Below, one piece after another: positions 14-11,461 of a stretch of DNA of 11,537 nucleotides (within the stretch, counting starts at the first letter, position 1; each line of letters opens with the position of its first letter). Location: contig URVO01000021.1 in assembly GCA_900551335.1 (NCBI GenBank), positions 1 to 11,537 of the forward strand, in the 5' to 3' direction. The DNA comes from an uncultured Phascolarctobacterium sp. (GTDB lineage Bacteria; Bacillota; Negativicutes; Acidaminococcales; Acidaminococcaceae). The translations under genes and the position numbers were made by a program. The notes under the pieces are model-generated. The model ran no database searches, was not told the DNA's origin, and saw only the letters and a list, made by a program, of their open reading frames with translations.

Positions 14-799
14 TTAGTAGCCACCGCCACCGCCGCCATGATCATCATCACTGCAATTGTCGCTTACGCTGCCGTCGTCGCTAGAGCTGCTTCTGTCATT
101 CTTCGGCTTCGGCACTGCTGCTACCGTAGTATGGGTATAAATATCGTCTTCATGCACCAGCTTGAAGGTTTCCTTATTCAGGTAAGCATCTGCCGCCACC
201 TCGTTGCGTACATTGCTCATGCTGCTCATCAGCATGCCGCGATATACGTAGGCGATAATGCCGCCGCCAGCCAAGCCGATAATCAATGCCAGCCAGTTGA
301 ATTCCTTCTCAGGCTCCCAGGGCTCGCCGTTAGCTTCATAATAGCTCATGAGCTCGCCGCCCTTTTGTGCGTAGGTGATATACGCTCCGGCATAATCATT
401 GTTCTTCAGCTTAGCTACCATAGGCTTGCTCATGTATTCTACACCAGCATTACCTTTGACAACCTCTTTCAGCTTTTTGTCAGTGCTGATATACCATTTG
501 CGTTTGTCGATAACCTGCAAAAGCACCATATTGCCGTTGGCACCGTCATTATAAACATCATCAATCAGCTTGTTGGCATATTTGCCGGGTTCCTCATTGT
601 TGATGGTTTTCATGACTACAACGCCCATACGGATCCCATGCTCCTGCTCCTGTCTGCGCAGCTCTGTGAGCACCTCACGCTTCTGCTGCGGAGTCAGTAC
701 ATTGGCATTATCTACCAGGCTCGGCGCTGCTGCCAAACCAACGCTTGCCAGCATCAGGGCTGCCAGCATGGTCAAGATTACAAATAACTTTCTCATCAT
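14..799 (-). CDS. TPM-domain (YgcG/YdjH-like) exported membrane protein
   Basis: Secreted TPM-domain protein, probably the YdjH member of a YdjGHI-type envelope-stress complex. The 261 residues begin with a signal peptide (about 1-25, ending GLAAA). A TPM fold follows at about 28-150: it opens with LVDNANVLTP, has the KRKWYIST strand, and ends with the KLKNNDYAGAYITYA helix. A transmembrane segment spans about 168-186 (NWLALIIGLAGGGIIAYVY). The tail is Ser/Asp-rich and ends in six glycines and a tyrosine, the low-complexity ending typical of YgcG relatives. The TPM domain therefore faces outside and the tail is inside if the signal peptide is cleaved. TPM domains have been proposed to be phosphatases, but no function is shown here. 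The SD is GGGAGGTG at 803-810. Two ATGs in tandem (799 and 796) are possible; 796 gives 7-base spacing. The SD touches the stop codon of the preceding gene, so the two are probably translationally coupled. Family call is confident, role is inferred from neighbours. Confidence 0.85.
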   Translation of the reverse strand: MMRKLFVILTMLAALMLASVGLAAAPSLVDNANVLTPQQKREVLTELRRQEQEHGIRMGVVVMKTINNEEPGKYANKLIDDVYNDGANGNMVLLQVIDKRKWYISTDKKLKEVVKGNAGVEYMSKPMVAKLKNNDYAGAYITYAQKGGELMSYYEANGEPWEPEKEFNWLALIIGLAGGGIIAYVYRGMLMSSMSNVRNEVAADAYLNKETFKLVHEDDIYTHTTVAAVPKPKNDRSSSSDDGSVSDNCSDDDHGGGGGGY

Positions 800-808
800 G
801 GCACCTCC

Positions 809-1912
809 CTACATCACGAACCAGGCGATAAGATAAACCAAAATCGCACCGATGAGGAAGGAAATCAGCGTGTAATTACGCAGCTTGCCGTAATCAATCG
901 GCAGACTGCCGACGAACTTGCCGGTCTGACCGTTCATCATAAAGGTGTAGGGCTTATCTTCAAAACGAGTTGTTAAAATCCACACCGGCACCATTGCATA
1001 GTGTACATCGTTTTCTTCCTTGATAACCGCAAGGTCATTATTGGCGCTGACCGAGGTATAACCGGTAACGGTGTTTTCCAGACAAGATTCCGCACTTTTT
1101 ACTACGCGCGCGTCTGCACGGCTTACGGCTGCCTCCGCATCAACATCATACTTATCTGCCAGATAACCGGCTAAATAAGATGTGCTGAAGGGAACCATAT
1201 CCTTGTAATCAAACGGCTCAATGCTTTCCATGAACTGGTCGTCCATCTTCTCGCTGCCGTCTACAGGAATACGCTCAAAGGACATTGTGCCTTCACGAAC
1301 GCAGTTATAGTGCAATGTAGTCGTAATAATCTCGTCATCCGTTTCATAAACGGAATCACTGCGGCCTTCAAAGCTGCCGCTCGCATTAACCGAGGAATCG
1401 AACAGCCAGAACGGTACATACATCGCCTGGATATCCTCCACACGGTTATTAGCTGTAAAAGCATCGGGCAAAAGCTTCTTGCCCTTATAGAATTCCTTGA
1501 GCGCAGCTACAGCCTGCTCCTTGGTTTTCTTGAACGGAATTACGAAGTCCGGCTTCAGCATATTGTCGAAGCGGCTCGGAAGCATCGTCGGGTTGCCGCA
1601 GTAGCAGCACTCTGTCGCCATGGTGTTTTCGTCGCAGACGATTTCGGCACCGCAGCTGGAGCAGGTGAACGCCTTCATCATTTCAGCTTCTTCCTTCTCC
1701 CATTCGCTGCCTGCGTTAGCGGTATCCCACTTGGCTTCCTTAGCTGCCTGCGCCTTCGCTGCAGCAGCCTCCTTCGCTGCATATAACTCCTCTACTGCCT
1801 TGATTTCCAGTTCCGTACCGCAATATTCGCACGTCACCTTATCATGCCCGGGCAGGAATGTTAAAGGAGCATTACAATTTGGGCACTGATAGTTTACAGA
1901 GGTTGCAGCCAT
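809..1912 (-). CDS. Tail-anchored double zinc-ribbon protein (YdjG-like)
   Basis: A 367-residue protein with two N-terminal zinc ribbons and one C-terminal membrane helix. Ribbon 1 uses C10-x2-C13 and C28-x2-C31 (QCPNCNAPL...CEYCGTELE), a TFIIB/PriA-like knuckle pair that often makes automatic annotation call such proteins 'replication restart' or 'helicase' proteins. There is no helicase domain here. An Ala/Lys/Glu-rich helix (about 38-62) links to ribbon 2, C84-x2-C87 and C102-x2-C105. The body (about 110-345) has no motif I recognise. The last 19 residues (LISFLIGAILVYLIAWFVM) form a membrane anchor, which leaves the zinc ribbons in the cytoplasm. Length and layout match B. subtilis YdjG, which acts with YdjH and YdjI at the membrane with PspA. 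The start at 1912 is supported by GAGGTGA at 1917-1923. The downstream TPM gene starts 10 bases after its stop. Confidence 0.8.
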   Translation of the reverse strand: MAATSVNYQCPNCNAPLTFLPGHDKVTCEYCGTELEIKAVEELYAAKEAAAAKAQAAKEAKWDTANAGSEWEKEEAEMMKAFTCSSCGAEIVCDENTMATECCYCGNPTMLPSRFDNMLKPDFVIPFKKTKEQAVAALKEFYKGKKLLPDAFTANNRVEDIQAMYVPFWLFDSSVNASGSFEGRSDSVYETDDEIITTTLHYNCVREGTMSFERIPVDGSEKMDDQFMESIEPFDYKDMVPFSTSYLAGYLADKYDVDAEAAVSRADARVVKSAESCLENTVTGYTSVSANNDLAVIKEENDVHYAMVPVWILTTRFEDKPYTFMMNGQTGKFVGSLPIDYGKLRNYTLISFLIGAILVYLIAWFVM

Positions 1913-2066: not shown

Positions 2067-3587
2067 TTATTGTTTATCGTTGTCGTCGAAAATATCGCCG
2101 CACTCAGGGCAGAACTTCGGCGGATTATGCGGATCATCAGGTACCCAGCCGCACTTATCGCACTTGAAAACGGGTGCGCCCTCAGGCTTCTTCGCACCGC
2201 AGTTAGCGCAGAATCTTCCTTGGTTTACAGTGCCGCAGCTGCAGGTCCAGCCTGCCTGCTCTGCCGGCTTCGGCGCGCCGCACTCAGCGCAGAATTTGCC
2301 GGTGTTGCCGCTGTGACCGCAAGCGCAGGTCCAGCCTGCTTCTGCTGCCTTCGGCTCAGGCTTCTTCGCACCGCATTCAGCACAGAATTTGCCGGTGTTG
2401 CCGGCACGACCGCAGCTGCAGGTCCAGCCTGCCTCAGCTGCTTGCGGAGCCGGAGCAGCTGCGGGAGCTGCTGCGCCCATTGCTGCACCACCCATCGGTG
2501 CGCCGCCCTGCTGCATGCCAGGCTGAGCATAGCCGCCCTGTGGCGGATAGCCAGGCTGAGCGTAGCCTTGCGGCGGCTGCATAGCCATCTGCTGGTTCAG
2601 AGCGTTCATCATGTTGCCGCCCTGAGCACCTGCCATACCCATGCCCATGAAGCCCATCATCGCGCCGCCCTCGTTGCCGGCAGCAGTCTGCATAGCAGTA
2701 CCGGTTGCACCGGTCATGAAGGCCATGCGTGCATTCGGATTAGAGAGAGCCTGCAGATCGCGGATGTATTTTTCGTCCTCTTCGCTTGCTTTAACGCTGC
2801 TTACGCCGAAGGAAATAACCTCTACGCCGCGCAGCTCGCGCCATTTCTTGCTCAGCACGTCATTGAGTGCATCGCCGATTTCCTGTGCATGACCAGGCAG
2901 TGCACTGTAGCGCACGCCCTTTTCACTCATCATGCCAAAGGCTTGGTTCAGGCCGGTCAACAGCTCAGTTTTCAGCTGGCCGTCAATCTCGCTGCGCTGA
3001 TATTCGTCGCTTACGTTGCCGCAAACATTGGTATAGAACAAAATCGGATTGGTAATCTTGTAGCTGTACTCGCCAAAGCAGCGGATAGGAATATCCATAT
3101 CCAGACCGATGCGCTGGTCAACAACACGGAAGGGAATCGGGCTGGCCGTGCCATATTTATTGCCGATGATTTCCTTCGTATTGAAGAAGTACACGCGCTG
3201 ATCCTTGCCAGGATCGCCGCCATAGGTGAAACGCTTGCCGATCTGAGCAAAGACATTCTTAACACTCTGCATATTCAGGCCATCTGCCATGATGGACGGC
3301 TCAGAAGAGGTATCATAAGTATATTCACCCGGCTCGGAGCAAAGCTCTACAACCTTGCCGTTTTCTACGATAATCATGCACTGACCTTCGTTGATGGCAA
3401 TGGTGGAGCCGTTGCTGATGATGTTATCCTCTGCCGTAGTGTTGGAGCTGCGTCCTTGGCTAGAGGTACGCTTCATGCCCTTGGCAACCAGAACATCCGG
3501 CTTCATGCTTTCACAGTAAATAAACTCTTTCCATTGATCGCCCAGTACGCCGCCAGCTGCGCCTAAAGCTGCTTTAATCAAACCCAT
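2067..3587 (-). CDS. SPFH-domain protein with C-terminal zinc-ribbon array (YdjI-like)
   Basis: A 506-residue SPFH (stomatin/prohibitin/flotillin) family protein of the bacterial YdjI type, often annotated 'virion core protein'. The N-terminus (MGLIKAALGAAGGVLGDQW, then FIYCESMKPDVLVAKG) and an SPFH domain at about 25-245 match the family; there is no long hydrophobic N-terminal anchor. In B. subtilis YdjI is needed to bring PspA to the membrane, where it works with YdjG and YdjH. A Gly/Met/Gln/Pro-rich linker (about 295-386) follows. Three tandem WTCxCG...FCxxCG ribbons come next (387-473; Cys 390/392/402/405, 421/423/433/436, 449/451/460/463), then a fourth CxxCGW...CPxCGD rubredoxin-like knuckle (476/479/493/496). 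At 506 residues it is much longer than the roughly 320 I recall for YdjI; the linker and ribbons account for this. The start is fixed by AGGAGG at 3595-3600, 7 bases upstream. First gene of the operon, with its own promoter at 3671-3699. Confidence 0.88.
   Translation of the reverse strand: MGLIKAALGAAGGVLGDQWKEFIYCESMKPDVLVAKGMKRTSSQGRSSNTTAEDNIISNGSTIAINEGQCMIIVENGKVVELCSEPGEYTYDTSSEPSIMADGLNMQSVKNVFAQIGKRFTYGGDPGKDQRVYFFNTKEIIGNKYGTASPIPFRVVDQRIGLDMDIPIRCFGEYSYKITNPILFYTNVCGNVSDEYQRSEIDGQLKTELLTGLNQAFGMMSEKGVRYSALPGHAQEIGDALNDVLSKKWRELRGVEVISFGVSSVKASEEDEKYIRDLQALSNPNARMAFMTGATGTAMQTAAGNEGGAMMGFMGMGMAGAQGGNMMNALNQQMAMQPPQGYAQPGYPPQGGYAQPGMQQGGAPMGGAAMGAAAPAAAPAPQAAEAGWTCSCGRAGNTGKFCAECGAKKPEPKAAEAGWTCACGHSGNTGKFCAECGAPKPAEQAGWTCSCGTVNQGRFCANCGAKKPEGAPVFKCDKCGWVPDDPHNPPKFCPECGDIFDDNDKQ
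2169..2429 (-). repeat. Tandem zinc-ribbon coding repeats
   Basis: Three in-frame repeats of 31, 28 and 28 codons inside the SPFH gene, each encoding GWTCxCG, a short turn, then G(K/R)FCAxCGAxKP. The DNA copies are visibly alike (for example, two near-identical stretches around the GKFCAECGA codons). This points to internal duplication. Repeats 1 and 2 are closest to each other (both NTGKFCAECGA). Repeat 3 has lost one residue between the knuckles (TVNQGRFCANCG), so it looks older or diverged. Such repeats can expand or contract by recombination, so copy number may differ between strains. Confidence 0.75.
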
Positions 3588-3608
3588 AATACAACCTCCT
3601 TTGTATTA
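3587..3608 (-). promoter_or_regulatory. Palindrome presenting the SD of the SPFH gene in its loop
   Basis: On the minus strand, TAATACAA, the Shine-Dalgarno AGGAGG and TTGTATTA follow one another directly. The arms form a perfect 8-bp inverted repeat with the whole SD as the six-base loop, and the last arm base is the A of the ATG start codon. Because the stem is A/T-rich it would be weak as RNA. It may keep the SD exposed, modulate initiation, or serve as a DNA or RNA protein site. The sequence is direct observation; any regulatory effect is inference. Confidence 0.55.
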
Positions 3609-3627
3609 CAAAAAATTTTTAAGCTTC

Positions 3628-3644
3628 CCTGCGTCTGCCGCAGG
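3628..3644 (-). promoter_or_regulatory. 5'-leader hairpin of the SPFH operon
   Basis: A G/C-rich 6-bp stem, CCTGCG/CGCAGG with a five-base loop, lies between the predicted transcription start (near 3664) and the start codon at 3587. On the minus strand it is followed 8-9 bases later by AAAAATTTTTT, so an attenuator is conceivable, but the gap to the T-run is longer than in a standard intrinsic terminator. It more likely stabilises the 5' end. On the plus strand a T-rich stretch also follows, but no plus-strand gene ends here. Confidence 0.4.
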
Positions 3645-3670
3645 TGTTGTTTTTAATCGACTGCATTTTT

Positions 3671-3699
3671 ATTTTAGCAAACATCCTATACTTTTTCAA
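3671..3699 (-). promoter_or_regulatory. Sigma-A type promoter for the SPFH/zinc-ribbon/TPM operon
   Basis: Read on the minus strand, a -35 box TTGAAA (3699-3694) is followed after exactly 17 bases by a -10 box TAAAAT (3676-3671). TG stands one base upstream of the -10, forming an extended -10 element. Transcription would start near 3664, leaving a leader of about 75 bases. This is the best promoter match in the intergenic region and points the right way. One arm of a 9-bp inverted repeat overlaps the -10 region. Confidence 0.7.
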
Positions 3700-3715
3700 A
3701 TTCATTTTTGCTAAA
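3673..3715. promoter_or_regulatory. Candidate operator: 9-bp inverted repeat around the promoter
   Basis: TTTAGCAAA at 3673-3681 and TTTGCTAAA at 3707-3715 are perfect inverted copies separated by 25 bases, with centres 34 bases apart, close to three helical turns. One copy overlaps the extended -10 element and the other sits just upstream of the -35. This arrangement would suit a repressor that binds both sides of the promoter. The binder is unknown; the divergent LuxR-type regulator is one candidate. In this A/T-rich stretch chance is possible, though a perfect 9-bp match in this position is notable. Confidence 0.4.
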
Positions 3716-3904
3716 TTCTCCTAAAGCGGTTTACTAATCGCCGATTATGTTATACACTAAGGTTATACGAAAACTACATCTCGTCTTCTGCAGCTTTAGT
3801 TTAACAAAAATCCCGTCATCTGACACTACCCGAAAGGTTAATTTTGGATAGGATAGGCAAAATTTTTTGCTGCACCTGCACTTTTATACTGGAGGTTTTC
3901 CCTT

Positions 3905-5251
3905 ATGAAGCGTATTTTCACCCTGCTGCTCAGCCTGTGCGTTCTACTTCTGGCAGGCTGCGGCTCTGACAAGAGTCTTAATCCTGATAAGCCTGTTTCC
4001 GTCACCATCTGGCATGTATACGGCAACCAGACTAATTCGCCCTTCAACGATTTGATTGATAAATTCAACGCCAGCGAAGGCAAAAAGCAGGGCGTTATTG
4101 TCAAGGTGGAATCCGTCAGCAGCTCCAACGTCATCGACAAGGCGCTCTACGCATCTGCCAAGGGTGCTCCCGGCGCTGCAACGCTGCCGAATATGTTCAC
4201 AGCCTATCCGCGCGTCATTGATAATCTCGAGGACAAGCTGCTGCTCTGGGATGAATATCTCACGCAGGACGATTTAAAGGTCTATAAGCCGGAATTTCTT
4301 GCAGAGGGCTATAAGGGCAAAAAGCTTTATATGCTGCCCATCGCCAAATCCACTGAGCTGTTTTTCCTGAACCAGACCTTCTTCGACCGCTTTGCCGCAG
4401 AAAATAATATCAAGCCTGCTGATCTTGGCGATTACGACAAGCTTTTCGCCATCTGCCGCCAATACTACAAATGGAGCGGCGGCAAAAATATGTGCCAGCT
4501 GGATGATTTCTACAATTATTATCTTACGAGCATGGAGTCCCTCGGTGACCCGCTCATCAAGAACGGCAAGCCCGACCTGACCTGTCCCGCCTTCAAGCGT
4601 GTCTTCCGCGCAGCAGCGCAGACAGCCATCGCCGGCGGCCTGGGTATTGAAAAGGGCTATGCCACTGACGGCTGGAAGACGGGCGCCTTAATCAGCAACG
4701 TCGGCTCCACTGCCGCCATCATGTATATGTGTGATTACGTAACGCATCCCGATAATACACGCGAGGACATCATCACCAACTACTATCCTAACCCCGTCTT
4801 CAGCGGCGGCACGGTGAAGCTGCTGCAGCGCGGCGTCGGACTTTTGGCTATCAAAAGCAAGGATGAACGTCAAAACCTTGCCTGCGCAATCTTTGCCAAA
4901 TGGCTGGCACAGAAGGATAAAAATATTTACTTCGCTGTGCACGCAGGCTATCTGCCCTCGAATGGTGAAGCGCTGACGGAGGTGCTTGCTCATCCGGATA
5001 TGGTGCATAACGCCAAATATCAGAAGCTTTATACCTGCATGCAGCAGGTTTACAGCAAGGGCGACTTTCTGCACCTGCCGCATTACCCCAACGCCGGGGA
5101 AACGCAGCGCAGCCTGGAATATGGCAGCAAGAATATCCTGCGTCAGGCACACAGACAATATCTTGCCGAGGTACAGGCAGGCGCAGAGCCGCAGGCCGTC
5201 CTCGACCGTTTAGTAGAAGAAAGCTACCAGAAGCTTTTGACCTATAAATAA
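3905..5251 (+). CDS. Extracellular solute-binding lipoprotein (ABC family 1-like)
   Basis: A 448-residue lipoprotein resembling UgpB/MalE-type (family 1) binding proteins. The signal peptide MKRIFTLLLSLCVLLLAGC has a lipobox LAGC with Cys19 as the lipidated residue. Family features include the first strand VSVTIWHVYG (about 31-40), the FNDLIDKFNAS helix, the KGKKLYMLPIAKSTELFFLNQTFFD hinge region, a GAAAIMY-like TAAIMYMCDY strand and the LAIKSKDERQNLACAIFAKWLA helix near the C-terminal lobe. It would bind a small extracellular ligand, perhaps a sugar or glycerophosphodiester, but specificity cannot be read from the sequence. SD GGAGG lies 9 bases before the start. No permease or ATPase follows. 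Instead, 20 bases downstream, comes a membrane-anchored regulator gene, so it may be a sensor's binding partner, or it may feed a transporter encoded elsewhere. Confidence 0.85.
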   Translation: MKRIFTLLLSLCVLLLAGCGSDKSLNPDKPVSVTIWHVYGNQTNSPFNDLIDKFNASEGKKQGVIVKVESVSSSNVIDKALYASAKGAPGAATLPNMFTAYPRVIDNLEDKLLLWDEYLTQDDLKVYKPEFLAEGYKGKKLYMLPIAKSTELFFLNQTFFDRFAAENNIKPADLGDYDKLFAICRQYYKWSGGKNMCQLDDFYNYYLTSMESLGDPLIKNGKPDLTCPAFKRVFRAAAQTAIAGGLGIEKGYATDGWKTGALISNVGSTAAIMYMCDYVTHPDNTREDIITNYYPNPVFSGGTVKLLQRGVGLLAIKSKDERQNLACAIFAKWLAQKDKNIYFAVHAGYLPSNGEALTEVLAHPDMVHNAKYQKLYTCMQQVYSKGDFLHLPHYPNAGETQRSLEYGSKNILRQAHRQYLAEVQAGAEPQAVLDRLVEESYQKLLTYK

Positions 5252-5271
5252 GCCTGCAGAAAGGAGAGCCT

Positions 5272-7050
5272 ATGCCGCAACGCTTAAAGTTTTTCCTGCA
5301 CAACAGAAAAAAAATCTGGCAGTCCCGACGCTCTCTGCGCAGCCGCTTCGTCTACTATCTGGCCTCGCTGTTTTTGGTCGGCGTCACCTCGCTGCTGCTC
5401 CTGCTCAACGCCATCGGCATTCTTCAGCCGCTTAATTATGACTTGGAGCGCTTTATGGACTACGAGCTGGACGCTCATACTAACGACATCAAACGTCAGA
5501 TGGACAGCCTCGCAGCGCACAACACGGACCTGTCGCAGCAGCTGGCCAATGAGATTGAACAGACGATGTACATGTTCGGCCTGGGTACGGACTTCGCCAA
5601 GCTCAACGATAATCCGCAGGTGCTCTCGGCCATTCAGGAGCGCAGCTACAACGTGCTCACCTCCAAGATGCAGCAGTCGCCCTGCAGCGGCGTGCTTTAC
5701 CTCGTTGATGCCAGCATCAACACCAGGACGCCAACCAAAACCTATAACGGCATGTTTTTGAAATACACCAACATTCATTCCGAAAACACGCTGTTCAACG
5801 AAATCTGTATGTTCCGCGGCAGCCCTGAGCTGGCGCGTCAAAAAAACATCAGCCTCTACAGCACCTGGCAGCTGGAGCTGGACACCAACGCCTTCCCGCA
5901 AACCACTCAGCTGCTGCAGGAGGAGCCTGATTCGCCAGGCTTTTTGCTCACTGACGTTGCCCGTCTGCGTGAAAGCTGGGAACGCTCGCGCCTTTTCGTT
6001 ATGCCGATTATCAGCAGCAGCGGCAAAGCTATTGGCCTGTGCGGCTTTGAAGTCAGCAGCGTTTATTTTCAGCAGCGCACCCGCAACGCCGATTATAAGG
6101 GCTATCCGCTCATCACTGCTATCCTCGACAAAAAAAATGACACGCAATATTCCGGACAGCTTTCCAGCTCGGCCTGGCAGAGCGATGCCCTGCTGAATTT
6201 CAGCAAGGATAAGGACTATGTTTATTTTACCTCCGGCAGCAATAGCTTCATAGGCAAGATGCAGTCCCTCGATATCGGCGACACCGAGCACCAGATTGCC
6301 GTTCTGCTGCCGCGTGAAAGCTATGACGCACTGCTGGCGCAGGCACGCTGGCGCTTAGCACTGCTGCTGAGCTTCCTGCTCGTGCTCTCTATCGGTTCCT
6401 GCTACTTCCTCAGCAAAAAATATGTGGAGCCGATTATCAGCGACCTGCAGCAGCTGCAAAGCAATCCTGACGCTGCACCTCAGTCGAACCTGCTGGAGAT
6501 AAACCAGTTCTTCGACTTCCTGCAAAGCAAATCGCAGCAGCAGGAGGAAAAGCTGCGTCAGCTCAGCAAGGAGCGCAACGCCGTCCAACAGCAATACGGA
6601 CTGGCAGCCACACGCCTCAAGGACGCGCAAAGCAGACAGCAGGCGATTGCCGAGCAGTACAAAGCTCTAGAAGAGCAGCTGCACGCCCTCAAGAGCGAAA
6701 TGGAGCAGGCACGCCAGCAGATGGCGCAGGCACTGCAGGAAAAGGAGCAGGCACAGCAGCAGTTCAACTTCGCCCAGACCGCGCTCGACAAGGTTGTAGC
6801 GAAAAAGCTGCAAATCATCGACCACGACAGCTATAAAATGTTTATCGACAATCTCTCTACGCTCACCACGAAGGAAAAAGAAATTTTCGACCTGTATACG
6901 CAGGGACTGTCTACCAAGGATATCATCGCCCAGCAGCAAATCAGCGAAAATACGCTGAAATACCATAACAAAAATATCTACAGCAAGCTTGGCGTAAAAT
7001 CACGCAAGGAGCTACTGCAGTATATTGAGCTGATGCGCAACACAAGATAA
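5272..7050 (+). CDS. Membrane-anchored one-component regulator: Cache-like sensor, coiled coil, LuxR HTH
   Basis: A 592-residue membrane transcription regulator. A basic N-terminus leads into transmembrane helix 1 (about 26-50). An extracellular sensor of about 310 residues follows; its FVMPIISSSGKAIGLCGFEV strand pair resembles double-Cache domains. Transmembrane helix 2 is at about 360-381. A cytoplasmic region begins KKYVEPIISDLQQL (HAMP-like position), and a Gln/Glu/Ala-rich coiled coil runs from about 402 to 515. The C-terminal LuxR/GerE helix-turn-helix is at about 528-588 (LTTKEKEIFDLYTQGLSTKD, then SENTLKYHNKNIYSKLGV). There is no histidine kinase, receiver or cyclase domain, so ligand binding outside would act directly on a DNA-binding domain tethered to the membrane, probably through coiled-coil dimerisation. 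SD AAGGAGAG lies at 5261-5268. Cotranscribed with the binding lipoprotein. The sensor family call is less sure than the HTH. Confidence 0.85.
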   Translation: MPQRLKFFLHNRKKIWQSRRSLRSRFVYYLASLFLVGVTSLLLLLNAIGILQPLNYDLERFMDYELDAHTNDIKRQMDSLAAHNTDLSQQLANEIEQTMYMFGLGTDFAKLNDNPQVLSAIQERSYNVLTSKMQQSPCSGVLYLVDASINTRTPTKTYNGMFLKYTNIHSENTLFNEICMFRGSPELARQKNISLYSTWQLELDTNAFPQTTQLLQEEPDSPGFLLTDVARLRESWERSRLFVMPIISSSGKAIGLCGFEVSSVYFQQRTRNADYKGYPLITAILDKKNDTQYSGQLSSSAWQSDALLNFSKDKDYVYFTSGSNSFIGKMQSLDIGDTEHQIAVLLPRESYDALLAQARWRLALLLSFLLVLSIGSCYFLSKKYVEPIISDLQQLQSNPDAAPQSNLLEINQFFDFLQSKSQQQEEKLRQLSKERNAVQQQYGLAATRLKDAQSRQQAIAEQYKALEEQLHALKSEMEQARQQMAQALQEKEQAQQQFNFAQTALDKVVAKKLQIIDHDSYKMFIDNLSTLTTKEKEIFDLYTQGLSTKDIIAQQQISENTLKYHNKNIYSKLGVKSRKELLQYIELMRNTR

Positions 7051-7057
7051 AGCAATA

Positions 7058-7093
7058 AGGGACTGACGCACACGCGCCAGTCCCTCTTTCTTT
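7058..7093 (+). terminator. Intrinsic terminator of the binding protein/regulator operon
   Basis: An 8-bp stem AGGGACTG (7058-7065) with CAGTCCCT (7078-7085) is extended by an inner CGC/GCG pairing (7067-7069 with 7074-7076) around an ACAC loop, and is followed by CTTTCTTT on the plus strand. It starts 8 bases after the stop of the regulator gene. The minus-strand nucleotidase operon ends at 7098, and after the hairpin its strand reads TATTGCTTTATCTT, so the element may terminate both convergent operons, less strongly on the minus strand. Confidence 0.8.
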
Positions 7094-7097
7094 GCCC

Positions 7098-8714
7098 TTA
7101 TTTAATTGTAATTCTGCCGTCGCCATAGGCGTTTGCATATTTATCGCTGATTTTCGCATTGAGATGGTTCTGGATATATTCCATAATCGCGTCTGCATCA
7201 GAAATCTTCGCATCCTGCAGCAGCTTCGCGCCCTTGAACATTATCATGCCGTCACCGGCGGACTTCAGGATATAGCCGTTGCCGCCCACGCTATAGATTT
7301 TATTAACATCAAGCGGCTTGCCGTCTACCATAACATCCACAACGCGTCTTGCACCGGCAACCTTAACGAAATTGCCCTTCTCGTCCAGTATAACGCTCGA
7401 CGGTACAGAGCTGTCAATAGTATAGCTCAGGCCTGCTACCTGCATAAAGCCACCGCTTTCCTCAGGATAGCTCATCGCGCCCATCTCCAGTGCATCCAGC
7501 ACCTGCTGACCGCTGGCCTCCAAAACCGTGCACATATTGCCAAACGGGAAAGCCTCAAGAATATCGTTGTAGGTCAGCACGCCAGCCTGCAGCTCGTTGC
7601 GGATGCTGCCGCCGTTCACCAGCACGATATCACAATCCAGCACAGCCTTATACGCATCGGCTACGAAATCACCCAAAGCACAGCCATGGTTGCGCACAAT
7701 GCGTTCGCCGGTCTTAGGGTCGTTGCTGTGTACCTGCACCAGCGCTTCACCTACCGGCTGTGCCAGCAGCGGTGCATAAATGTCCATTTCCCGGGCAATA
7801 ACCTTCTGCACCTCGGCATCCTTGCCGTTTGCAGCAGTAATCAGCTTCGTCTCCAGCTTGCCTGCCGGTGTAATCACCAGCTGCCCAACAGTCTTCAGCT
7901 TGGTGCCTGTCTGCGCCAGCAAAACGTCCTTGCCCTTTTTGTTCTGCACCACGCGTTCATATCTTTCATGCGAATGGCCGTCGATGATGCCGTCTACGCC
8001 GGTCGTATGCTTCGCAATATTTTCACTGCTCCACTGCGGCGTCGTGCCGTCCATGCCCAGATGCCCAACTATGAAGACATAATCTGCGCCCTGCTTACGG
8101 GCAGCGTTGATATTTTTCTGCAGCTGCTTATAAAGCTTCTTGCCGCTCGTGTCCTCGCAGAAGCTGTAAATATATTTTCCCTGAGCATCCTGGAAAAAAG
8201 TCGGCGTCGAGGTGGTCAAGGCCTCTGGCGTCGTTGCACCGACGAAGGCCACCTTCTTATCCTCAAACTCCATCAGCTTATAGCCGGGCAGCACCTGCTT
8301 TTTCGTGCGCAAATCCATAAAGTTCGCGCTGTAATAGCCAGCCTGCTGCTGCGGCACCAGCTCCAGGAAGCGTGCCATGCCATAATCAAATTCATGGTTG
8401 CCGGGAATGCAGAAGTCATAGCCGACTGCGTTCATAATGTTCACTACGGCCTCGCCTGTCGACAGCTTGCCAAGAGGAGCGCCCTGAATCGCATCGCCTG
8501 CATCCACCAGCGCCACGTTCGGCGTCTGTGCCAGCGCATCCTTTTTCAGCTGCGCCAGACCTGCAAAGCCGATGTTATCATTCACGCCGCAGTGAATGTC
8601 ATTCGTATGCAGAATCACAATATCATGCTCCAGCGCCCACGCCAGCAGCGGAGCGGAAAGCGTCATCGCTGTCGTAACTAAGAGCAGCGAGGTTTTCTTC
8701 CAAAAATTTTTCAT
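7098..8714 (-). CDS. Exported 5'-nucleotidase/metallophosphoesterase (UshA-like)
   Basis: Secreted two-domain nucleotidase of 538 residues that would hydrolyse nucleotides, or related phosphoesters, outside the cytoplasmic membrane. The signal peptide is MKNFWKK plus a hydrophobic core ending LLAWA (about 1-27). The N-terminal metallophosphoesterase domain carries all expected metal ligands: D39/H41 (NDIH), D74 (DAGD), N106/H107 (GNHE), H218 (VGHLG), H247/H249 (GHSH). The C-terminal 5'-nucleotidase domain begins about 330 and has the GDFVADAY, LVNGGSIRNEL and EAFPFGN motifs used in substrate binding. An upstream ATG at 8741 would add nine residues and overlap the preceding gene. I choose 8714 because it gives a proper signal peptide, an AAAGGA site 9 bases upstream, and a 4-base gap to the preceding gene. 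Last gene of a four-gene operon. Confidence 0.9.
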   Translation of the reverse strand: MKNFWKKTSLLLVTTAMTLSAPLLAWALEHDIVILHTNDIHCGVNDNIGFAGLAQLKKDALAQTPNVALVDAGDAIQGAPLGKLSTGEAVVNIMNAVGYDFCIPGNHEFDYGMARFLELVPQQQAGYYSANFMDLRTKKQVLPGYKLMEFEDKKVAFVGATTPEALTTSTPTFFQDAQGKYIYSFCEDTSGKKLYKQLQKNINAARKQGADYVFIVGHLGMDGTTPQWSSENIAKHTTGVDGIIDGHSHERYERVVQNKKGKDVLLAQTGTKLKTVGQLVITPAGKLETKLITAANGKDAEVQKVIAREMDIYAPLLAQPVGEALVQVHSNDPKTGERIVRNHGCALGDFVADAYKAVLDCDIVLVNGGSIRNELQAGVLTYNDILEAFPFGNMCTVLEASGQQVLDALEMGAMSYPEESGGFMQVAGLSYTIDSSVPSSVILDEKGNFVKVAGARRVVDVMVDGKPLDVNKIYSVGGNGYILKSAGDGMIMFKGAKLLQDAKISDADAIMEYIQNHLNAKISDKYANAYGDGRITIK

Positions 8715-8718
8715 AGTT

Positions 8719-9222
8719 TCACATCCTTTCGACTGTGCCATCAGCCTGCAGCTTTTTACACAATGCCTGCAGCGCTGCGCGCAGCTCCTTTTCCTGCTCC
8801 GCGGTCAGCTCCGCCGTAAACACTGCCTGACTGTCCATTTCCAGCTCCAGACTGCGCTCATCAGCATCCAGCGCCACGCAGCCGTCATCAGGCTGCTTCG
8901 GCTCCACGATAGCCCAAGCAAGCAGGTTCACTACCTTCTCCAGCTGGTCAATCTCGGCACGCTCATTGCGCGTCACCAAAGCACGCTCCAGCTCACAGCG
9001 CTCGCCCTGCCCGCTATCCAGGAAATTGCAGCATACCCTTCTGTCGCCCTTGCTATCACGATAAACGTAGAAGCTGAAGCTGTAATCATAGCACATAGCG
9101 CTTTTACTATAGCTCAGGCTCCTCCAGTCCATAGGTACGCTGCCGCCTGCCTCCGCCTGCGCTGCAGAAACAGCAAGCAGCAGTAAGGCAGCTGCTAAAC
9201 TCAAAAGCATGGTTTTCATCAT
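8719..9222 (-). CDS. Exported cysteine-rich protein of unknown function
   Basis: A 167-residue protein that I do not recognise. It has a clear signal peptide (about 1-23, MMKTMLLSLAAALLLL ending SAAQA) and no lipobox. The mature part has six cysteines (44, 64, 65, 76, 115, 155), an even number compatible with disulfides. An aromatic strand (CYDYSFSFYVYRD) is followed by an acidic helical half (ALVTRNERAEIDQLEKVVNL, then LTAEQEKELRAALQALCKKL). The start at 9222 is chosen for AAGGCGGTG just upstream; a GTG at 9228 is also in frame but overlaps the SD, and the next ATG (9219) is possible. It ends 4 bases before the exported nucleotidase gene, so the two are probably translationally coupled. A periplasmic or surface helper of the nucleotidase is a guess from context only. 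Confidence 0.75.
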   Translation of the reverse strand: MMKTMLLSLAAALLLLAVSAAQAEAGGSVPMDWRSLSYSKSAMCYDYSFSFYVYRDSKGDRRVCCNFLDSGQGERCELERALVTRNERAEIDQLEKVVNLLAWAIVEPKQPDDGCVALDADERSLELEMDSQAVFTAELTAEQEKELRAALQALCKKLQADGTVERM

Positions 9223-9994: not shown

Positions 9995-11461
9995 TTACGC
10001 TTCTATCACCAGCCTGCCTTCGACCTCTCTATGCATATGCTGATGTGTTGTAAAATATTCCTCAATCACCTCGCGATAGGATGTCGCTACAATCCTGAAG
10101 CCGCCGTTGGCCATAACCTCATCCAGCGTAACATCCAGGAATTCTGCAAGATTGCTGAAATGGTATTTCGAAAGCGCCAGCTTATAGATTTTTTCCGGCT
10201 CCAGCGGCCTGCCGTTAAAAAGCAGCTTCTTGAACTGCTGCAGGCTACGGCTCCACGCCACCTCAAAGCCAGAGGATAATTGATAAAACTCCGTATGGGC
10301 GCCGCTAAAGGCCTCCTCGCGCAAAAAGCGCCTCAGCATCCGTTCCACCTGCGCTCCCGTCACCTTGATCATATAGGTGGCTTCGTCGAAGGGGAAGCAC
10401 TCGCTGAAATCAGCATAATGCACCACCGGTCCCAGCGCCTTGCTGCGGATAGCCCCGGAGCCCATGAACGCCATATCCACGCCCAGGCTTTCGCACAAAG
10501 CATCGGCAGCAAGATTGCCTAACGGTGTTTCCTGCGTCCGTAGCGGATGCTCCAATCGCTGCGTGAAGCGAGTCACAATGCGGTTATACTTTTTATCGGT
10601 AACCTCTTTATACTGCAAAATGAAGTTATAAATCTCTTCATCCAACGGACAGGTTTCGTCATTGATGGGAATAGTACGCCAGGTGTAGCTGTCCACAGCG
10701 TTTCTGTCAGTATCCACCATAATATCGAAGCGACCGATCTGGTCTGTACCCGTACCAGCCTGCACAATCAGAATATCGTTAACCTCCGCAGGCTCCGTCG
10801 GCAGCGTGTGCGAATGACCGCCGATGATAACGTCCACACCCCACGCAGGATCCAGAATCGCTGCCAGCTCCTTGTCCTCCTCAAAGCCGATATGCGTAAG
10901 CAGAATCGTGAAATCTATATCTATCGCATTATAAGCATTGCAGATGCGGCCAACCTCCTCTGCCGCCTCGCCGATATCAATGAAGGAGCCGATATATTCC
11001 TCCATCCGCGTATGTGCAAGCACCTCCTGCGTAATGACACCGATAAAAAGAATCTTCATCCCATCAAGCTCGGCAATATAATGTGATTCAAACATTCTTC
11101 TATGGTTCGTACGGATATAAAAATTGGCGTTGATAATCGGGAAGTTTGCGCATTTCTCCAAAAAAAGCAGGTGCGCAATGCCATAATCAACCTCATGATT
11201 GCCAATAGTCGCTACATCAGGGCCGAGCAGATTCATAATCTCGATAGTAGAAACGCCTCTGAACTCCGAATCAATGACAGAACCACGAAACATATCCCCG
11301 GCAATCGCATAGAGCACATTTTTTTCTTCTGCTCTCACCTTATTGACATAGCCGCTCAGTCTAGCCACACCGCCAACGAGCTTGCTGTCAATTTTTTCCG
11401 CGAAAAAATCTCCATGCATATCATTAGAGTGCAGCAGTGTCAGTTTCTTTAAATTTTTCAT
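9995..11461 (-). CDS. Cytosolic 5'-nucleotidase-family metallophosphatase (YunD-like)
   Basis: A 488-residue paralogue of the exported nucleotidase, but with no signal peptide: MKNLKKLTLLHSNDMHG enters the catalytic domain directly, so it should act in the cytoplasm. Metal ligands are complete: D14/H16 (NDMH), D56 (AGDMFRGS), N88/H89 (GNHE), H190 (LTHIG), H216/H218 (GGHSH). The C-terminal nucleotidase domain (about 310-485) has TPLGNLAADAL, FMGSGAIRSKALG and ECFPFDEATYMIKVTG. Size and lack of export match B. subtilis YunD-type proteins; the substrate is unknown and could be a nucleotide or another phosphoester. The SD is GAGGGGTGG just upstream of 11461. First visible gene of the four-gene operon; its promoter should lie in or beyond the last 76 bases. 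Confidence 0.88.
   Translation of the reverse strand: MKNLKKLTLLHSNDMHGDFFAEKIDSKLVGGVARLSGYVNKVRAEEKNVLYAIAGDMFRGSVIDSEFRGVSTIEIMNLLGPDVATIGNHEVDYGIAHLLFLEKCANFPIINANFYIRTNHRRMFESHYIAELDGMKILFIGVITQEVLAHTRMEEYIGSFIDIGEAAEEVGRICNAYNAIDIDFTILLTHIGFEEDKELAAILDPAWGVDVIIGGHSHTLPTEPAEVNDILIVQAGTGTDQIGRFDIMVDTDRNAVDSYTWRTIPINDETCPLDEEIYNFILQYKEVTDKKYNRIVTRFTQRLEHPLRTQETPLGNLAADALCESLGVDMAFMGSGAIRSKALGPVVHYADFSECFPFDEATYMIKVTGAQVERMLRRFLREEAFSGAHTEFYQLSSGFEVAWSRSLQQFKKLLFNGRPLEPEKIYKLALSKYHFSNLAEFLDVTLDEVMANGGFRIVATSYREVIEEYFTTHQHMHREVEGRLVIEA

What the first reader, a model, noticed from the sequence alone, without database searches (positions are those of the whole stretch)
3905..7050. Binding lipoprotein paired with a membrane LuxR sensor and no transporter
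A family-1-like solute-binding lipoprotein is cotranscribed with a membrane protein that has an extracellular Cache-like domain and a cytosolic HTH. With no permease or ATPase gene nearby, the pair may form a one-component signalling system in which the loaded lipoprotein docks on the sensor and the DNA-binding domain responds directly. This is the best candidate for a little-described system in the window.
Basis: partly seen in the sequence, partly recalled or inferred. Interest (0 to 1): 0.7.

Follow-up and report, generated by a model that had tools for sequence, protein, structure and literature searches.

The report
Binding-protein-gated membrane transcription factor pair
A surface binding lipoprotein and a membrane-spanning DNA-binding protein form a gene pair kept together across gut bacteria without transporter genes in their operon, next to a conserved DNA site and membrane-stress-type genes, so they probably act as one outside-to-DNA sensing switch.

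Summary
In this Phascolarctobacterium window a solute-binding lipoprotein (3905-5251 +) is followed after 20 bp by a two-TM protein with a double-Cache (dCache) sensor, a coiled coil and a LuxR/GerE HTH (5272-7050 +). SBP-first: 73 of 74 testable loci have the regulator's sensor directly after the SBP. Regulator-first: 21 of 21 new loci have the SBP. An operator, CYACCC-N14-GGGTRGG, lies in the divergent promoter region; a matrix built only from Clostridia loci picks out one site in the window, 3823-3856, at 20.1 bits (next 1.2). It lies between the pair and a divergent SPFH/zinc-ribbon/TPM operon resembling B. subtilis ydjGHI. I conclude that this is a two-gene signalling module, probably SBP-gated, whose receptor is itself the transcription factor. 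Docking, ligand and direction of regulation are not shown. SBP-activated receptors listed in PMC9602780 (passages) are kinases, chemoreceptors, cyclic-di-GMP enzymes and Ser/Thr kinases. In Clostridia relatives (not the window) the divergent operon carries a covarying leader RNA with no convincing Rfam match.

The parts
3905..5251 (+). Solute-binding lipoprotein, 448 aa (SBP); lipobox LAGC with Cys19 at 3959-3961
   Evidence: Pfam SBP_bac_8 E 1.8e-16; Cys19 invariant in 55 sequences; model pLDDT 92.3, CUT1-type SBP fold
5272..7050 (+). Membrane one-component regulator, 592 aa (REG)
   Evidence: GerE E 1.5e-14; model; 65-sequence alignment A3
5335..5415 (+). REG TM1, residues about 22-48
   Evidence: helix 22-48 in the model; hydrophobic stretch at the same place in homologues
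5416..6345 (+). REG double-Cache sensor, residues about 49-358
6346..6414 (+). REG TM2, residues about 359-381
   Evidence: second hydrophobic stretch in homologues and helix 348-397
6493..6810 (+). REG cytosolic coiled coil, residues about 408-513 (low confidence around 438-450)
   Evidence: helices 408-441 and 449-513; weak coiled-coil matches
6859..7023 (+). REG LuxR/GerE helix-turn-helix, residues 530-584
   Evidence: Pfam GerE; PDB GerE 1fse E 3.1e-7
3823..3856 (.). Predicted operator: CACTACCC-N14-GGATAGG, the GGATAG half repeated once more up to 3857
   Evidence: PWM from 25 Clostridia loci: 20.1 bits, next best in window 1.2, best of 40 shuffled windows (one strand each) 3.8
3798..3826 (-). 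Possible divergent promoter: GTGTCA (3826-3821), 17 bp, TAAACT (3803-3798), its -35 abutting an operator half-site
   Evidence: position equivalent to TATAAT/GATAAT in Clostridia loci; by eye, weak -10
2067..3587 (-). Divergent SPFH/Band_7_1 protein with C-terminal zinc ribbons (YdjI-like), proposed target
   Evidence: Band_7_1 E 2.3e-18; SPFH enriched near the pair
809..1912 (-). Zinc-ribbon protein with C-terminal TM (YdjG-like), proposed target
   Evidence: two CxxC ribbons and a C-terminal hydrophobic stretch in the sequence; below Pfam cut-offs; same cluster in 9 of 80 loci
14..799 (-). TPM-domain membrane protein (YdjH-like), proposed target
   Evidence: TPM_phosphatase E 2.3e-18; 6 of 80 loci
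7057..7086 (.). Terminator-like hairpin after REG, between convergent genes
   Evidence: 13-bp stem, scored on the minus strand

Best explanation
The two genes encode a single outside-to-DNA signalling switch. The SBP, anchored by lipid outside the cytoplasm, binds a small extracellular solute and changes the state of the dCache sensor of its partner, probably by docking on it. The change passes through TM2 and the coiled coil of a REG dimer to the LuxR/GerE HTH, which binds half-sites GGGTRGG arranged as an inverted repeat (CYACCC-N14-GGGTRGG) plus tandem copies in the divergent promoter region. There it controls the divergent membrane/envelope operon (in the window SPFH, zinc-ribbon and TPM genes) and probably its own operon. 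Shown by computation: conserved pair, no transporter in the operon, dCache and SBP folds, a conserved operator at the predicted place in the window, consistently divergent accessory genes. Inferred: docking, dimer, ligand, HTH-to-operator binding, activation rather than repression.
For: Pair conserved: 73 of 74 testable SBP loci (80 examined, 6 end at a contig edge; two of the 73, L074 and L075, have a GGDEF output) and 21 of 21 new regulator-first loci. dCache fold and SBP fold. SBP divergence follows the sensor more than the HTH of the same polypeptide. Output can change while SBP+dCache stays: SBP followed by dCache-GGDEF in L074 (Pfam), and by eye in L075 and L091. Sensor can change while HTH type, operator and target genes stay: a HisKA_7TM-LuxR protein beside predicted sites, the RNA leader and DUF4428/DUF6935 genes in L158. 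Operator: cross-class test; dyad TACCC-N14-GGGTA in 12 of 48 upstream regions versus at most 4 for any dyad in 30 shuffled sets. Genes of 13 accessory families upstream of the SBP: 148 of 148 on the opposite strand. Predicted sites in trans in G001 precede a DUF6935 gene, a zinc-ribbon-like gene and a dCache-GGDEF-EAL gene. SPFH near the pair: 8 loci versus 0.40 expected in 50 genomes.
Against: No binding or expression data. A complex of the two proteins could not be modelled here. Constant adjacency also fits an orphan SBP whose uptake system lies elsewhere, with REG sensing alone. The operator is not recognised in about half of the pair loci (27 of 48 match the relaxed pattern, and one of these, L005, looks like a hairpin); L003, L005 and L079 have good pairs without it. 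The strict pattern is not diagnostic at large: 41 of 295 genomes of one order match it, and many of those matches have GC-rich spacers and lie in genomes without REG. HK/RR-type genes near some loci (clusters 8, 9, 14, 17) lie on either strand (24 + and 14 -), so not every recurrent neighbour is divergent. The sensor-versus-HTH correlation could partly reflect different constraint on a conserved HTH.
Confidence: 0.62

Rival explanations
1. The SBP is an orphan transport SBP that serves a transporter encoded elsewhere; REG senses its ligand directly with its dCache domain and regulates, among others, the SBP gene. The two proteins never touch.
For: SBP fold is a normal CUT1-type transport SBP. 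dCache domains often bind ligands directly (general knowledge). Adjacency alone would be explained by autoregulation. Genomes were not searched for a distant transporter.
Against: No transporter-like ORF was seen between SBP and REG in the 80 loci, and none within six ORFs upstream of the SBP where a position could be given. Permease- or ATPase-like ORFs occur in 13 of 80 loci at scattered places; the only true ABC piece directly after REG is an 86-aa convergent ORF in L053, the L070 motif hit is a peptidase, and the L037 permease pair lies three and four ORFs beyond REG on the other strand. Pfam on neighbours lists ABC_tran once and no BPD_transp_1 among the 25 families shown per side. SBP tracks the sensor. 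The SBP stays with dCache when the output is GGDEF.
Confidence: 0.22
2. The empty SBP holds REG off and ligand (or envelope damage that displaces the SBP) releases it, so the lipoprotein is an inhibitory sensor partner for envelope state, not a nutrient sensor.
For: Divergent genes look like envelope/membrane genes: SPFH, TPM, zinc ribbon, lipoproteins, SLH proteins. B. subtilis YdjGHI acts with PspA at the membrane under stress (PMC8581546, passages).
Against: The SBP keeps a binding-protein fold with many invariant residues, which argues for a real ligand; there are no data on the sign.
Confidence: 0.12
3. The operator belongs to another regulator (for example the small LuxR protein or the HK/RR genes near some loci), and the SBP-REG pair acts on other targets.
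For: A LuxR response regulator or small LuxR protein lies near the pair in 11 of 80 loci and the c8 membrane kinase-like protein in 11. L001 and L002 have a small LuxR gene just upstream of the SBP, in L001 between SPFH and SBP.
Against: Of 26 operator-bearing loci, 22 lack these genes in the stretch held, and so does the window; REG is the only DNA-binding protein that I found common to them. In L158 the sites go with another protein that shares the REG-type HTH.
Confidence: 0.08

Closest known systems
SBP-activated transmembrane receptors (BctC-BctE and XylFII-LytS seen in PMC9602780 passages and references; GlnH-GlnX in an abstract; TorT-TorS recalled)
   Same: An extracytoplasmic SBP that acts on a transmembrane receptor
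   Different: Outputs listed in PMC9602780 (passages) are sensor kinases, chemoreceptors, cyclic-di-GMP enzymes and Ser/Thr kinases; here the receptor carries the DNA-binding domain itself, and no transporter is encoded alongside
Membrane one-component transcription factors of the ToxR/CadC type (recalled, no call)
   Same: Signal input outside, DNA-binding domain inside, one polypeptide
   Different: LuxR/GerE HTH at the C-terminus after a dCache sensor and coiled coil; paired with an SBP
dCache receptors (Tlp1, PctA, mmHK1 and others)
   Different: LuxR output; below Pfam detection for Cache in the window protein
B. subtilis pspA-ydjGHI (Psp-like membrane stress operon)
   Same: SPFH, TPM and zinc-ribbon/TM genes together (PMC8581546 and PMC11237479, passages)
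   Different: No PspA among the nine window ORFs scanned; sigma-W controlled in B. subtilis, here proposed to be under SBP-REG

Membership tests
SBP-dependent receptor system | SBP-fold extracytoplasmic protein encoded beside a transmembrane receptor with an extracytoplasmic sensor | tested here: met
   adjacency
SBP-dependent receptor system | SBP binds the receptor sensor | not testable with these tools
   no complex prediction available; only indirect co-divergence
SBP-dependent receptor system | Output of a receptor class already listed for SBP activation (kinase, chemoreceptor, DGC/PDE, Ser/Thr kinase) | tested here: not met
   C-terminal GerE HTH as the only output domain found; list from PMC9602780 passages
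LuxR/GerE one-component regulator | GerE HTH with sensor in the same chain and no receiver domain | tested here: met
dCache sensor | Long N-terminal helix followed by two PAS-like lobes between two TM helices | tested here: met
dCache sensor | Match to a Cache profile in the window protein | tested here: not met
   none at E 0.1; GGDEF relative L074 matches MCP-like_PDC_1 (28.0 bits, cut-off 27) and dCache_1 below cut-off
CUT1 ABC transporter SBP | SBP fold | tested here: met
CUT1 ABC transporter SBP | Permease genes in the operon | tested here: not met
pspA-ydjGHI operon | SPFH, TPM and zinc-ribbon/TM genes side by side on one strand | tested here: met
   the zinc-ribbon gene by eye
pspA-ydjGHI operon | PspA gene in the operon | tested here: not met
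   not among the nine window ORFs scanned; the minus-strand run reaches the window edge and the genome beyond is not held

The most novel reading that the evidence does not exclude
A new class of SBP-gated receptor in which a solute-binding lipoprotein signals through a dCache sensor straight to a membrane-tethered LuxR transcription factor, spread over Phascolarctobacterium and relatives, Lachnospirales, Oscillospirales and a few other lineages. It controls a Psp-like SPFH/zinc-ribbon/DUF6935 envelope regulon through a conserved GGGTRGG operator, with an undescribed pseudoknotted leader RNA as a second control layer in Clostridia.
Probability: 0.5. Interest if true: 0.82.

Novelty: new variant of a known kind. 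Interest (0 to 1): 0.72.

Why it matters
It would add a receptor class to SBP signalling, one that skips phosphotransfer and second messengers, and it would propose a regulator for Psp-like SPFH/TPM/zinc-ribbon modules in gut anaerobes. It can be tested directly: the pair, a 34-bp operator and a divergent promoter fit in one reporter construct.

Tried and rejected
One search used a permease motif in a wrong register; its empty permease result is discarded. One search used a corrected one but a narrow ATPase motif that missed some ATPases (for example in L017); one search repeats the scan with a wider motif and one search checks the nearest candidates by Pfam. Pfam, NCBIfam and PDB sequence searches did not identify the sensor; the model did. 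Fusion evidence: L098 has SBP and REG in one ORF, but the SBP lacks its N-terminus and an internal stretch, so I treat it as a deletion or assembly artefact. RNA hairpin reading of the operator: rejected as the main reading because the Y/R position breaks the pair in 5 of 25 training sites (C with A) and tandem direct copies cannot pair with each other. Defence: PADLOC gave three weak matches to REG and none to four other window proteins. Rfam: no match at gathering score in 10 sources, none at E 5 for the L022 stretch, only matches far below gathering score for the window and L018 stretches. Nucleotide ligand: suggested by UpG-binding SBP structures, two 5'-nucleotidase genes in the window and a nucleoside hydrolase near a predicted site in L152, but nucleotidase genes are near the pair in only 4 of 80 loci; kept as a lead only. 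Literature: the listings, judged by title and start of abstract, showed no paper on an SBP acting on a one-component transcription factor; searches covered the accessory genes. Only open-licence PMC papers are searched. DUF6935 had no paper.

Rows left out: the SBP scan kept the best 80 of 88 loci. Upstream neighbours scanned 123 of 143 at positions -1 and -2 (70-899 aa), downstream 92 of 125; I left out by hand the L004 duplicates and a number of short or probably spurious ORFs. Both Pfam tables show only the 25 most frequent of 42 and 84 families. Neighbours of 900 aa or more were not scanned. The RNA alignment holds 41 of 42 extracted leaders (L023, near-identical to L019, left out). The operator matrix left out L001, L005 and the window.
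Full report

Is the pair real? From the SBP side, an alignment search of 84,980 species genomes found 88 loci and kept the best 80. Six end at a contig edge; of the other 74, 73 have a homologue of the regulator's sensor directly after the SBP on the same strand, two of them (L074, L075) with a GGDEF output. The exception, L080, holds only a fragment of the SBP. The median gap is 12 bp in 68 ORF pairs (range -80 to 362). From the regulator side, searches of 250 genomes of the class of G001, 59 of its family, 295 of the order of G003 and 295 of the order of G006 found matches in 3, 2, 7 and 17 genomes (by recalled taxonomy these are Negativicutes, the Phascolarctobacterium family, Lachnospirales and Oscillospirales; the family set overlaps the class set, and two of the 17 genomes have HTH-only matches). 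Among these, 21 loci with a sensor match were new, and all 21 have the SBP directly upstream, one in a single ORF with a deleted SBP (L098) and one truncated (L099). The regulator is rare, but in the loci seen its sensor is never without the SBP. Four further loci were HTH-only (L114, L115, L118, L120; the last cut by a contig end).

No transporter in the operon. In the 80 loci no transporter-like ORF was seen between SBP and REG, and none within six ORFs upstream where a position could be given. A motif and cluster scan marks 16 permease- or ATPase-like ORFs in 13 of 80 loci at scattered places. Nearest to the pair are an 86-aa convergent ABC_tran piece after REG in L053, a motif hit in L070 that is a peptidase, an ABC ATPase two ORFs after REG in L041, and a true permease pair (BPD_transp_1) three and four ORFs after REG on the other strand in L037. 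Pfam on 123 upstream and 92 downstream neighbours lists ABC_tran once and no BPD_transp_1 among the 25 families shown on either side.

Does the SBP act on the sensor? Indirect evidence only. Pairwise SBP distances over 80 non-redundant pairs correlate with the sensor (0.905) more than with the HTH (0.773) of the same protein; partial correlations are 0.75 and 0.18. With 73 random sensor columns the range is 0.84-0.92 against 0.76 for the HTH (79 pairs). The SBP also stays with a dCache-like protein when the output is GGDEF (L074 by Pfam, L075 and L091 by sequence). Both facts fit an SBP that works through the sensor; neither proves docking.

The divergent genes. Around the 80 loci recurrent families lie upstream of the SBP: DUF6935 in 29 loci, a 460-aa lipoprotein in 26, a 150-aa protein in 19, small zinc-ribbon proteins in 14, DUF4428 proteins in 13 and 7, SPFH in 10, YdjG-like in 9, TPM in 6. 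For 13 such families, all 148 genes found upstream are on the opposite strand; eight more lie downstream, also on that strand; 58 of 80 loci have at least one. HK/RR-type clusters (8, 9, 14, 17), which I did not count among them, lie on either strand (24 + and 14 -). SPFH is enriched: 8 loci, not counting L001, against 0.40 expected from 58 copies in 50 genomes. In the window the divergent genes are SPFH, zinc-ribbon/TM and TPM, the content of B. subtilis ydjGHI without pspA (passages of PMC8581546 and PMC11237479). The passages of PMC8581546 report YdjI, YdjG and YdjH working with PspA at the membrane. PMC11237479 does not contain 'LuxR' (0 occurrences), and its two 'solute-binding' passages concern other systems.

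The operator. In 48 non-redundant regions upstream of the SBP (the window's included), TACCC-N14-GGGTA occurs in 12, against at most 4 for any dyad in 30 first-order shuffled sets. The relaxed form [TC]ACCC-N14-GGGT[AG] is in 27 of 48, 25 of these 63-96 bp before the SBP start, in many loci followed by two tandem GGGTRGG copies near -45 and -30. A matrix from 25 Clostridia sites, without any Phascolarctobacterium sequence, gives one outstanding hit in the window, 3823-3856, 20.1 bits; the next is 1.2 and the best of 40 shuffled windows (one strand each) 3.8. On the opposite strand the first half-site abuts the -35 region of a TATAAT-like box in many Clostridia loci, a usual place for an activator of the divergent operon. 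In the window the equivalent box is a weak TAAACT (3803-3798), and a better-scoring box lies nearer SPFH (TTGAAA-17-TAAAAT, 3699-3671). The sign of regulation is therefore a guess. The strict pattern is found in 40 of 50 pair-bearing genomes, the reversed control pattern in 4 of 50; many of the 40 are training loci. G001, a Phascolarctobacterium, has six distinct sites: besides the SBP promoter they precede a DUF6935 gene next to zinc-ribbon and TPM genes, a zinc-ribbon-like gene (two sites), a small lipoprotein-like gene and a dCache-GGDEF-EAL gene. In the order of G006 at large 41 of 295 genomes match, many with GC-rich spacers, and control matches are also common there, so the pattern alone does not mark the system.

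Sensor exchange. In G574 (L158) predicted sites (31.8 and 11.5 bits), the leader RNA and DUF4428/DUF6935 genes sit beside a protein with a HisKA_7TM sensor and a REG-like HTH; no SBP-dCache match was found in that genome. HisKA_7TM-GerE proteins also lie beside the RNA in G660, G698 and G740, none of which had a REG match. In L034 such a protein sits directly upstream of an SBP-REG pair. So HTH type, RNA and target genes go together while the sensor varies.

Leader RNA (relatives, not the window). Downstream of the divergent TATAAT-like box many Clostridia loci carry a 100-145 nt leader with GCGCCAAC in a hairpin loop. On 41 sequences a four-helix, pseudoknotted structure pairs 92.2 percent of cells, with 13 of 22 pairs changed on both sides and a covariation score of 0.309, against 0.069-0.123 for slid versions; four of five measures were reached by 0 of 500 shuffles, the fifth (pair types) by 23. 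One pair of helix 1 fails in 21 of 41 sequences, and I derived the structure from this alignment. Rfam 15 has no match at gathering score in 10 sources and no convincing one in the closer looks. A model without the pseudoknots finds it in 9 of 197 genomes; it does not match the window at E 0.1.

Verdict. It works like SBP-activated receptors but differs from the receptor types listed in PMC9602780 (passages) in carrying its own DNA-binding domain. I file it as a new variant of a known kind, with docking, ligand and sign unproven.

Noticed in passing
L018:2808-2949 (-), L022:8382-8481 (-) and 39 more loci of alignment A7: Conserved leader RNA with GCGCCAAC loop, four helices and pseudoknots with strong covariation upstream of the divergent accessory operons in Clostridia; no convincing Rfam match. 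Candidate new cis-regulatory RNA.
   Followed up: partly
L158:6031-7086 (-); L162:1700-2845 (+); L167:144-1220 (-); L172:1869-2960 (+); L034:898-1860 (+): HisKA_7TM sensors fused to a GerE HTH beside the same RNA or accessory genes: a second sensor type for what looks like the same regulon.
   Followed up: partly
L074, L075, L091: Related SBPs followed by a dCache-GGDEF protein in Clostridium-type genomes (Pfam for L074; the others by sequence).
   Followed up: partly
L013, L015, L018, L019, L020, L023, L025, L039, L044, L057: A 71-79 aa Cro-like HTH gene overlaps the regulator stop by 4 bp in 10 of 80 loci.
   Followed up: no
L113:1426-3774 (+): REG homologue of 782 aa with an extra C-terminal region that by eye resembles that of the nearby c8 membrane kinase-like protein.
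   Followed up: no
window 7098-8741 (-) and 9995-11461 (-): Two 5'-nucleotidase-family genes; with UpG-binding SBPs as structural neighbours this hints at a nucleotide ligand, but the link is not conserved.
   Followed up: partly
window 3588-3791 (-): The window's own SPFH leader is predicted to fold strongly (-49.2 kcal/mol, z -4.0) though it does not match the Clostridia RNA model.
   Followed up: no
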